A DNA stretch of 64,000 bases, from assembly GCF_025979705.1 (NCBI RefSeq), contig NZ_CP110136.1, positions 3,286,001 through 3,350,000 of the forward strand, given 5' to 3'. The notes under the pieces are model-generated. The model saw nothing but the letters and a program-made list of their open reading frames with translations, was not told the DNA's origin and searched no databases. Positions 37,295 through 40,507 of the stretch are shown here, in pieces (the stretch's first letter is position 1; every line of letters starts with the position of its first letter). The translations under genes were made by a program, and so were the position numbers. This stretch comes from Hymenobacter sp. YIM 151858-1. Lineage in GTDB: Bacteria; Bacteroidota; Bacteroidia; Cytophagales; Hymenobacteraceae.

Positions 37295-38956
37295 TTATTC
37301 GTCGAGGTATTGGTGCACAAACTTGATGGCCATGGCCCCCTCGCCCACGGCCGAGGCCACGCGGGCCATGGCGCCGGCGCGGCTGTCGCCGGCCGCGAAA
37401 ATGCCCGGCACCGAGGTTTCGAGGGCGTAGGGTTCGCGGCGCTTTTTCCAGATGGGGGCAAACCGGGCATCGGCCAGCAAATCGCGGCCGGTAATTACAA
37501 AGCCTTTGCCGTCGCAGAGCACGGCATTGCACAGCCACTCGGTGCTGGGCTTGGCCCCGATGAACACAAACACGGCCCGGGCGGAGCACTCCTGCTCGGC
37601 GCCGCTTTGGTTGTGGTGCAGCACCACGGTTTCGAGGCTATCCTGGCCGCGCACCTCTTTTATTTCGGTGTAAGGCAGCAGCTCGATGTTGGGCGTGCGG
37701 CCGATCTGCTCGATGAGGTAGGCCGACATGGACGCCGCCAACGACGCCCCGCGAATCACGATGTACACCTTGCGTGCAAACACGGCCAGGTACATAGCCG
37801 CCTGGCCCGCCGAGTTGCCACCGCCCACCACGTACACATCCTGCTGGCTGCAGGAGCGCGCCTCGGTGCGGGCCGCGCCGTAGTACACGCCCGCGCCGGT
37901 AAGCCGCTCCATGCCGGGTACGGCCAGCTGCCGGTAGCTTACGCCGGTGGTCAGCACCACGGCGCGGGTGCGCACCTCGCTGCCATCGGCCAGGGTAAGC
38001 ACCTTGTACTCATCCTGCACGCACAGCTGCGTTACCTCCTGCGGCGACAAAAACTCGGCCCCCAGGCGCACGGCTTGCGCCCACGCCCGGTGCGCCAGCT
38101 CGGCCCCGCTCAGGCCCGTCGGGAAGCCTAGGTAGTTTTCGATGCGCGACGAGGTGCCAGCTTGCCCGCCGGGGGTTTGCCGCTCAATCAGCAGGGTTTT
38201 CAGGCCCTCGGAGGCCCCGTACACCGCGGCACCTAGGCCCGAGGGGCCGGCGCCCACCACCACCACATCGTAGAGTGGCTGCGAAGCTTTTAGGGCCAAG
38301 CCCAGCTTTTCGGCAATGGCCGTGCGGCTGGGCTGCGCCAAGGCGGTGCCGTCGTCGAACACGGTTATGGGCAAGTCGCTCGGCGTCAGACCTAGGGAGC
38401 TAAGCAGTACGGCCGCTTCGGGGTTGGTTTCGAAATCGAGCCACTGAAACGCCACCATGTACGCCGCCAGAAAGTCCTTGAGCTCGTGCGACTGCGGCGA
38501 CCATTGAAAGCCCAGCAGCCGCACGCCCTGAAAGCGCGGCTGGTACTGCGCCTGCCAGGTGGCCAGCAAATCGTGCAGCGTGGGGTAGAGCAGGTGCTGG
38601 GGCGGGTCCCAGGGCTTCATGAGGTAATAATCGAGGTGCGCTTCGTTGATGGCCCGGATAGCGGCCTCGGTATCGGCGTAGGCCGTGAGCAGCACGCGCT
38701 TGGCCTCCGGAAAGAGCGTGCGCGCCTGCTCGAGCAGCTGCACGCCCTCCATATCGGGCATGCGCTGATCGGAGAGTACCAGGGCCAGTGGCTCGGCGCG
38801 GGCTTTTAGCTGACGAATGGCCTCGAGCCCCTCGGCCCCCGAACCAGCGCGCAGAATGCGGTAGTCCTGGCGAAACTCCTGGCGCAAGTCGCGGTCGATG
38901 GCGGCGAGTACCTGCGGGTCGTCGTCGACCACGAGCAAAGCTGGCTTCTTGGGCAT
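37295..38956 (-). CDS. Receiver - glutaredoxin-like - thioredoxin-reductase-like flavoprotein fusion
   Basis: 553 aa. Residues 1-120 are a response-regulator receiver (DDD at 11-13, phosphoacceptor Asp63 in LVLSDQRMPD, Lys115 in YYLMKPW). Residues about 145-220 look like a glutaredoxin-type domain whose active site has become WSPQSHEL, without cysteine. From 230 on, a thioredoxin-reductase-like flavoprotein has the FAD motif VVVGAGPSGLGAAVYG and the NAD(P)H motif VYVVGGGNSAGQAA, but no CxxC, so disulphide reduction is unlikely. Paired with the kinase at 39104 on the same strand. The output is probably a phosphorylation-controlled redox enzyme. Confidence 0.85.
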   Translation of the reverse strand: MPKKPALLVVDDDPQVLAAIDRDLRQEFRQDYRILRAGSGAEGLEAIRQLKARAEPLALVLSDQRMPDMEGVQLLEQARTLFPEAKRVLLTAYADTEAAIRAINEAHLDYYLMKPWDPPQHLLYPTLHDLLATWQAQYQPRFQGVRLLGFQWSPQSHELKDFLAAYMVAFQWLDFETNPEAAVLLSSLGLTPSDLPITVFDDGTALAQPSRTAIAEKLGLALKASQPLYDVVVVGAGPSGLGAAVYGASEGLKTLLIERQTPGGQAGTSSRIENYLGFPTGLSGAELAHRAWAQAVRLGAEFLSPQEVTQLCVQDEYKVLTLADGSEVRTRAVVLTTGVSYRQLAVPGMERLTGAGVYYGAARTEARSCSQQDVYVVGGGNSAGQAAMYLAVFARKVYIVIRGASLAASMSAYLIEQIGRTPNIELLPYTEIKEVRGQDSLETVVLHHNQSGAEQECSARAVFVFIGAKPSTEWLCNAVLCDGKGFVITGRDLLADARFAPIWKKRREPYALETSVPGIFAAGDSRAGAMARVASAVGEGAMAIKFVHQYLDE

Positions 38957-38975
38957 GGCGAGGGTACTAATTAAT

Positions 38976-39103
38976 AAGTGACAGGTAACACGAAACAGGT
39001 GACAGGAAGGACGCGCGAGCCAGATGGCACGTGGTGGGCAACAGGCAATACGTAAGCAAGTGGCTTTTCCAGCCTGTGACGTGTCACTTGTTACCTGTTA
39101 CTT
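38976..39103. repeat. Intergenic inverted repeat GTGACAGGTAACA... between kinase and flavoprotein genes
   Basis: Imperfect 31-bp arms 38976-39006 and 39073-39103 with repeated ACAGGT/ACCTGT, spacer 66 bp. The right arm touches the kinase stop. May attenuate or process the two-gene mRNA. Confidence 0.65.
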
Positions 39104-40507
39104 TTAATCGGCCAGCGGCAGCCACACGCAAAACTCGGTGCGGCCGGGCTCGGAGTTGGCTTGCAGGCGCCCGCCGTGGCTGAGCACGATGCGCCGGGCA
39201 ATGTCGAGCCCCAGGCCGGTGCCCTCGCCTACGGGTTTGGTGGTGTAGAAGGGCTCGAAGATGTGCGGCAGCACCTCTGGCGCAATGCCCGAGCCGCTGT
39301 CGATAATGCACACACAAATAAAATTGCCCTCGCGGCGGGTGCGCAGCGTAAGGGTGCCGTCTTGGGGCAAAGCGTCGATGGCGTTGTCAATCAGGTTGGT
39401 CCATACCTGGTTGAGCGCCCCCGGCGAGCCATCAACAAGCACCAAACCCTGGGCGTACTCGCGCACTACCTGAACGTGGCGCTGCCGCAGCGGGTAGCTG
39501 AGCAAAGCCAGGGTGCTATCGAGGCCGCCGTGCACATCGGTGGGCACCATGCCGGCACCGCGGTCCATGTGGGAGTACTCCTTTACGTTGCGCACCAGCT
39601 CCGAAATGCGCCGGGCCGCCTCTTGCACATCGCGCACCAACTGGCGGCTGGCCAGCTGGCCTTCGAGCCACCGCAGGGCTGGTTGGCGTGCGTGCCTAGG
39701 TAGCGCGGCCAACACGGGCGCCAGGGCATCTTCGTCGAGGCCGCCGCTGAGCAGGCCGGCGGCCAGGGTGTGGGCGTCGGCAATGCCTTGCTTGCGCAGC
39801 CAGGCCTCCAGCTCCTCCTCGCAATCGGCCTGCTCCAGCACCGAGAGCGAGGTGCTGGCCAGCGCCGAGCGGCTGGCCAGGGCCAACAACGGGGGCAGCT
39901 GCTCGGCCGGTACGCCCGCGGCCAGCAACTCTTGCAGCAGCATGGGCTCGGCACCGGTGCGGGCCGAGAGGTCGGCGGCGGCCCGGCTGATGGCGGCAGC
40001 GGGGTTGTTCAGCTCGTGGGCCAGGCCGGCAGCCAGCTTACCTAGGGCGCGCAGCTTGTCGTCGCGCTCCAGCCCGCGGGCTTCTTCGCGCACCCGGTCG
40101 CTCATCAGCCCCACCAACCGCTGCACCAGCTCGGGGCTTTGGTGCTCCAGCTCCGGAAACTGGCTGCGGTGCAGCATCAGCAGGGTTGCATCGGCCGTAA
40201 CCACGCCGGTGGCCGTGGTTTGACGCAGCCGCGAGTACGGCAACACCCCCGACACGGCCGGCGCCTCGAAGCGCAGAAAAGGCTCGCGCTGCCCGCCTTG
40301 CTCGCGCCACAGCTGCAACGCACCGCGCAACAATACAAACATATGGTCGGTAGGGTCGCCGGGCCTGAACAGCTCGGTACCAGCGGGCAAAAAGCGCGCT
40401 TCGCTGTGCTCCAGCAGCCACATCAGTACTTCGTCGGGCAAGCCGGCCAGTACTGGTATGGTGGCCAAGTCGTCGGCCGTTACGAGCGGGGTAGTTGAGG
40501 TAGCCAT
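39104..40507 (-). CDS. Cyclic-nucleotide-binding soluble histidine kinase
   Basis: 467 aa, no membrane helix. Residues 12-130 form a CRP-type cNMP-binding domain ([25 protein letters not shown]). Then HisKA with H-box [13 protein letters not shown] (His164), a long insert and an HATPase domain: N-box [17 protein letters not shown]1 DSGSGIAP, F-box FEPFYTTK, G2 GTGLGLDIA. The likely partner is the receiver-flavoprotein encoded 147 bp downstream. Ligand of the sensor domain is unknown. Confidence 0.88.

What the first reader, a model, noticed from the sequence alone, without database searches (positions are those of the whole stretch)
37295..40507. Two-component pair with a flavoprotein as output and a cNMP-type sensor
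A soluble kinase with an N-terminal CRP-like domain is followed by a receiver fused to a cysteine-less glutaredoxin-like domain and a thioredoxin-reductase-like flavoprotein without CxxC. Signalling would act directly on a redox enzyme and not on DNA. What the flavoprotein oxidises or reduces is unknown.
Basis: partly seen in the sequence, partly recalled or inferred. Interest (0 to 1): 0.62.

Follow-up and report, generated by a model that had tools for sequence, protein, structure and literature searches.

The report
Kinase paired with switchable redox flavoprotein
Two neighbouring genes encode a soluble sensor kinase and a receiver-controlled, thioredoxin-reductase-like flavoprotein that has lost both of its usual cysteine pairs; the two are inherited together in many bacterial groups, so a phosphate signal probably switches a redox enzyme directly, although what it reduces is unknown.

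Summary
On the minus strand, 40507-39104 encodes a soluble histidine kinase with an N-terminal CRP-like (CNB) domain, and 38956-37295 encodes REC + glutaredoxin-like + thioredoxin-reductase-like (TrxR) domains, with no CxxC at either redox site. The pair is not a local oddity. In 296 Bacteroidota genomes the REC-type flavoprotein occurs in 41 and the kinase in the same 41 plus one partial match. The two genes are usually adjacent, in changing order, also in cyanobacteria, Deinococcus, Burkholderiaceae and actinobacteria. Homologous flavoproteins without REC, which either carry a fused CNB domain or have no N-terminal module, never had this kinase beside them. That interchange strongly supports kinase -> receiver -> flavoprotein. 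Both CxxC sites are missing in 44/44 diverse relatives, while the FAD and NAD(P)H motifs are kept. Any activity therefore cannot be dithiol relay and must be direct flavin chemistry, or the protein is a redox-reading scaffold. The 'cNMP sensor' label is weak: the canonical cAMP-contacting Glu and Arg are absent. The kinase also carries an unnoticed ~90-residue insert in its dimerisation hairpin. The REC-TrxR architecture is already listed in a published census, but I found no functional study. Verdict: a new variant of a known kind, directly testable; substrate and signal unknown.

The parts
39104..40507 (-). soluble sensor histidine kinase (P0002, 467 aa)
40085..40468 (-). CRP-like (CNB) domain, residues 14-141, with non-canonical phosphate-binding cassette G87-V-L-P-Y-S-R93
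   Evidence: Pfam PF00027; PDB hits 2pqq, 4ev0, MlotiK1; cassette survey
39956..40057 (-). first DHp helix with H-box [15 protein letters not shown], phospho-acceptor His164 (residues 151-184)
   Evidence: invariant in all complete rows; ZraS alignment
39650..39952 (-). helical insertion within the DHp hairpin (residues 186-286), about 90 residues longer than in ZraS
   Evidence: no Pfam match
39110..39424 (-). HATPase_c domain (residues 362-466) with intact N, G1, F and G2 boxes
38957..39103 (.). 147-bp intergenic spacer with an imperfect inverted repeat
37295..38956 (-). REC-glutaredoxin-like-thioredoxin-reductase-like flavoprotein (P0001, 553 aa)
38600..38935 (-). receiver domain (residues 8-119): acidic D11-D13, phospho-acceptor D63, T91, K114 all invariant
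38300..38527 (-). cysteine-less glutaredoxin-like domain (residues 144-219)
37337..38272 (-). thioredoxin-reductase-like FAD/NAD(P)H domain (residues 229-540)
37862..37876 (-). position of the TrxR CxxC-D: here A361-A-R-T364-E365

Best explanation
A two-component system whose output is a redox flavoprotein and not a DNA-binding protein. A soluble kinase reads an intracellular signal through its CRP-like domain (and perhaps its DHp insert), autophosphorylates His164 and passes the phosphate to Asp63 of the neighbouring receiver. The receiver gates the attached flavoprotein, which binds FAD and NAD(P)H. Having no CxxC, the flavoprotein passes electrons straight from the flavin to an external partner, with the cysteine-less glutaredoxin-like domain serving as a docking or interface module. 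Shown by sequence: domains, intact phosphotransfer residues, intact FAD/NAD(P)H motifs, loss of both CxxC sites, co-inheritance of the two genes. Inferred: phosphotransfer, gating, flavin-to-partner electron transfer, link to stress or protein quality control. Unknown: ligand and electron acceptor.
For: Same 296 Bacteroidota genomes: REC-type flavoprotein in 41, kinase in those 41 plus one partial hit; 26/26 genera carrying the flavoprotein also carry the kinase. In two genomes the genes are about 29 kb apart or on different contigs, yet both are present. A kinase match lies beside the flavoprotein in 78 of 80 fetched genome loci (two of those matches are truncated by contig ends), and beside REC-type flavoproteins of cyanobacteria, Deinococcus, Burkholderiaceae and actinobacteria, often with overlapping genes and in the opposite order. 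Relatives without REC, in which the flavoprotein carries a CNB domain or no N-terminal module, have no such kinase nearby (plasmid loci; 5 Bacteroidota loci). D11-13, D63, T91 and K114 of REC and H164 and the ATP-binding boxes of the kinase are conserved. FAD/NAD(P)H Rossmann motifs are kept while CxxC is lost at both sites in 44/44, so the site is conserved, not decaying. The genome has a separate CxxC TrxR, a TrxR-like FNR and a YpdA-like enzyme.
Against: No biochemical data. Phosphotransfer within the pair is untested, and the genome has many other histidine kinases. Two of the three HRRxxxR residues that bind the NADPH 2'-phosphate are missing (only R402 is kept), so the coenzyme is uncertain. 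The AlphaFold model is moderate (pLDDT 81, pTM 0.66) and weak at segments 261-271 and 525-534, which line the FAD site in TrxR. A pseudoenzyme reading is not excluded.
Confidence: 0.55

Rival explanations
1. Redox-reading scaffold: the flavoprotein is not a turnover enzyme but senses NAD(P)H/FAD state (or O2) and signals by conformation, either to partners docked on the glutaredoxin-like domain or back through REC to the kinase.
For: Both catalytic CxxC sites are gone in 44/44 relatives; signalling domains (REC or CNB) are exchanged at its N-terminus; always coupled to the kinase in the REC form in Bacteroidota.
Against: Both nucleotide-binding motifs and a distinctive flavin-side motif (GGQAGxSSRIENYLGFP) are almost invariant, more than a scaffold needs; stand-alone forms without any signalling domain exist next to DsbA-family or ClpB genes.
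Confidence: 0.25
2. NAD(P)H oxidase or diaphorase: the reduced flavin reacts with O2 or quinones and makes a peroxide or redox signal on demand.
For: TrxR-fold flavin with no dithiol relay and a conserved acid (E365: 41 E and 2 D of 44) where TrxR has its CxxC-D aspartate.
Against: Does not explain the retained glutaredoxin-like domain or the neighbouring thioredoxin, zf-UBP and chaperone genes in several relatives.
Confidence: 0.12
3. The two genes are neighbours but not partners: the kinase serves another regulator and REC is controlled by another kinase or is constitutively on.
For: 147-bp spacer in the window; two Bacteroidota genomes with the genes apart.
Against: 41/41 co-occurrence in genomes and 26/26 in genera, adjacency kept through order changes across phyla.
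Confidence: 0.05

Closest known systems
[quoted passage not shown]
   Same: Same REC + TrxR-like architecture; listed as response regulators with enzymatic outputs
   Different: The census passages read give no kinase partner, glutaredoxin-like domain, cysteine loss or function
Proteins annotated 'cyclic nucleotide-binding domain-containing thioredoxin-disulfide reductase' (e.g. L122, L129)
   Same: Homologous Grx-like + CxxC-less TrxR-like core at about 47% identity
   Different: CNB domain fused in place of REC and no kinase neighbour; the name 'thioredoxin-disulfide reductase' is not supported because CxxC is absent
Low-Mr thioredoxin reductase (TrxB)
   Same: FAD/NAD(P)H fold, GxGxxG, GGGNSA-type motif, closest solved structures
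   Different: No CxxC; extra REC and Grx-like domains; scores 229 bits against an NCBIfam cut-off of 343
AhpF
   Same: Thioredoxin-fold N-terminal part in front of a TrxR-like module; full-length Foldseek match
   Different: AhpF relays electrons through two CxxC sites; here both are missing and REC is added
TrxR-like enzymes without CxxC (TrxR-like FNR, YpdA)
   Same: TrxR-like flavoprotein fold acting without the TrxR dithiol
   Different: Only distant similarity; the window genome has separate members of both (L003, L007)
ZraS/NtrB-type histidine kinases
   Same: H-box and HATPase domain (ZraS 9jfj is the best PDB match)
   Different: Soluble, CRP-like input, about 90-residue insertion in the DHp hairpin

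Membership tests
Two-component system | Kinase with phospho-acceptor His and ATP-binding boxes | tested here: met
   His164 and the N/G boxes invariant
Two-component system | Receiver with acidic pocket, phospho-Asp, Thr and Lys | tested here: met
   D11-13, D63, T91, K114 invariant
Two-component system | Specific phosphotransfer between the two proteins | not testable with these tools
   Indirect support only: 41/41 co-occurrence
Thioredoxin reductase | FAD and NAD(P)H Rossmann motifs | tested here: met
   GAGPSG and GGGNSAG kept
Thioredoxin reductase | Redox-active CxxC in the NADPH domain | tested here: not met
   AART in place of CxxC; absent in 44/44
Glutaredoxin | Glutaredoxin fold | tested here: met
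   Profile hit to Rv3198A E 3e-8; Pfam in 5/10 orthologues
Glutaredoxin | Catalytic Cys (CxxC or CxxS) | tested here: not met
   S153-P-Q-S156 in the window; no CxxC in 44/44
cAMP/cGMP-binding CNB domain | CNB fold | tested here: met
   PF00027 E 1.8e-9; PDB matches
cAMP/cGMP-binding CNB domain | Phosphate-binding cassette Glu and Arg | tested here: not met
   Glu position mostly V/L/A/I and never Glu; Arg position variable and never Arg
REC-TrxR response regulator class | REC fused to a TrxR-like module | tested here: met
   class named in PMC5847659

The most novel reading that the evidence does not exclude
A widespread, functionally unstudied redox-control module in which a CxxC-less NAD(P)H flavoprotein is switched either by phosphate (REC plus CNB-kinase) or directly by a CNB ligand, and acts in protein quality control together with ClpB/DnaK, a thioredoxin and zf-UBP proteins through a dead glutaredoxin domain used as a docking site.
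Probability: 0.15. Interest if true: 0.8.

Novelty: new variant of a known kind. Interest (0 to 1): 0.5.

Why it matters
Response regulators with metabolic-enzyme outputs are known as domain architectures, but I found no demonstration of direct phospho-control of a redox flavoenzyme. This family is common across at least five phyla, some members are annotated misleadingly as thioredoxin-disulfide reductase, and it comes in two exchangeable wirings (kinase plus receiver, or fused CNB) around one conserved core. That gives clean predictions for signal-gated electron transfer that a few in vitro assays could settle.

Tried and rejected
Housekeeping thioredoxin reductase: rejected, CxxC missing and a CxxC enzyme is encoded elsewhere. 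Decayed or pseudogene copy: rejected, active-site and nucleotide motifs are nearly invariant and the ORF is intact in dozens of genomes. Cys369 as an alternative catalytic thiol: considered, but replaced in 9/44 relatives, so not essential family-wide. Canonical cAMP sensing: cassette residues absent. zf-UBP as an obligatory third part: beside several relatives but absent from the window genome. Literature: 10 full-text searches of open PMC papers found only the architecture census. Pfam on the kinase insert gave nothing significant. Promoter and terminator scans were uninformative.

Full report
What is there. On the minus strand of the window, 40507-39104 encodes a 467-residue soluble histidine kinase and 38956-37295 a 553-residue three-domain flavoprotein. 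The window belongs to a Hymenobacteraceae genome: the flavoprotein is 99% identical to that of Solirubrum puertoriconensis. The kinase has a CRP-like (CNB) domain, a DHp helix with the H-box [15 protein letters not shown] and a standard HATPase domain. The flavoprotein has a receiver (REC), a glutaredoxin-like domain and a thioredoxin-reductase-like FAD/NAD(P)H domain.

Not chance. A genome scan returned 523 relatives; the best 80 were kept. Across 81 flavoproteins D11-D13, D63, T91 and K114 do not vary, and His164 does not vary in the complete kinases. In 150 genomes of the same family 74 carry the flavoprotein.

The two genes form one unit. Searching the same 296 Bacteroidota genomes, the REC-type flavoprotein is in 41 and the kinase (E <= 1e-45) is in exactly those 41 plus one genome with a partial match; counted by genus it is 26 of 26 plus one. 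The Fisher values (1e-49 by genome, 2e-27 by genus) ignore relatedness and only illustrate the pattern. Of 80 fetched genome loci 78 have a kinase match beside the flavoprotein, two of these cut by contig ends; in L073 the upstream kinase is broken into fragments and in L079 none was found. In Bacteroidota the kinase usually comes first; in Nostoc, Gloeothece, Deinococcus, Streptomyces, Nocardia and Tsukamurella the flavoprotein comes first, often with overlapping ORFs; in Caballeronia and a Paraburkholderia kinases flank it on both sides. Adjacency that survives changes of order is good evidence of partnership. Exceptions outside Bacteroidota: one divergent Streptomyces REC-type gene (L131) has no kinase beside it, and in Nostoc edaphicum (L140) an annotated ATP-binding protein, not tested here, lies behind an inserted transposase gene.

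The N-terminal module is exchangeable. A homologous core occurs with a fused CNB domain instead of REC (L122, L123, L125, L129, L134, L135, L137-L139, and Bacteroidota L149 and L150; for L149 and L150 read from the sequence), or with no N-terminal module (L128, L130, L136, L147, L148, L151). None of these has a CNB-kinase beside it, and the four Bacteroidota genomes holding only such forms lack the kinase. A tree of the core needs four module changes over three states, against a shuffled mean of 12. So control by a CNB domain appears in two wirings: in cis by fusion, or in trans through kinase and receiver. This is the strongest argument that the kinase's input controls the flavoprotein.

The redox core. 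In 44 diverse relatives none has CxxC at the TrxR position or at the glutaredoxin position. In contrast the FAD and NAD(P)H motifs, a GGQAGxSSRIENYLGFP segment and R402 are nearly or fully invariant, and an acid stands at E365 (41 E, 2 D). The window genome has its own CxxC TrxR, a TrxR-like FNR and a YpdA-like protein (the last two identified by similarity and by eye). This enzyme therefore cannot work by dithiol relay like TrxR or AhpF. Either the flavin passes electrons directly to an outside partner, or the protein reads the redox state. Two of three HRRxxxR residues for the NADPH phosphate are gone, so NADH remains possible (alignment).

The sensor. The CNB fold is clear, but the two residues that hold cAMP in canonical cassettes are missing; the Bacteroidota kinases have instead an invariant G-x-L-P-[YF]-S-R, which the Deinococcus kinase also shows and the Nostoc and Streptomyces kinases do not. 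Calling it a cNMP sensor goes beyond the evidence. It matches no Pfam family.

Context. A zf-UBP protein sits next to several relatives, but the window genome has none. In Rhodococcus and Streptomyces plasmids the CNB-fused form lies with clpB, trxA and zf-UBP genes, with dnaK-grpE-dnaJ visible in two of the three loci; in one Bacteroidota genome a stand-alone form directly follows an ORF that reads as ClpB (L147, identified by eye). This hints at stress or protein quality control but is not shown for the window pair.

What is known. [quoted passage not shown]), so the architecture is known. Ten full-text searches of open papers found no functional work; subscription papers were not searched.

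Verdict. Observation confirmed; the two-component reading is strongly supported by comparative genomics; phosphate gating of a working flavoenzyme is the best explanation but untested; the cNMP label is not supported beyond the fold.

Noticed in passing
window 39650-39952 (minus strand): The kinase has an ~90-residue, Pfam-unmatched helical insertion in its DHp hairpin that all its relatives share; possibly a second sensing or dimerisation element.
   Followed up: partly
window 38957-39103: The spacer holds a long imperfect inverted repeat built from GTAACAGGTAACAAGTGAC-like words that folds better than shuffles (z -3.5); only one short further match elsewhere in the genome.
   Followed up: partly
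L122 4834-7242, L129 4822-7302, L134 2834-5254: CNB-fused relatives of the flavoprotein lie with clpB, trxA and zf-UBP genes (dnaK-grpE-dnaJ visible in two of the three loci) in Rhodococcus and Streptomyces plasmids.
   Followed up: partly
L147 2352-6236: A stand-alone Grx-TrxR-like flavoprotein starts 3 bases after an ORF that reads as ClpB in a Bacteroidota genome.
   Followed up: no
L130 4754-7290: A stand-alone form in Gloeocapsa follows a thioredoxin-domain protein and a DsbA-family oxidoreductase, a hint at partner proteins.
   Followed up: no
L073 3584-4918: In Hymenobacter fodinae the kinase gene upstream of an intact flavoprotein is broken into fragments, with a zf-UBP gene before it: a natural kinase-less case.
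   Followed up: no
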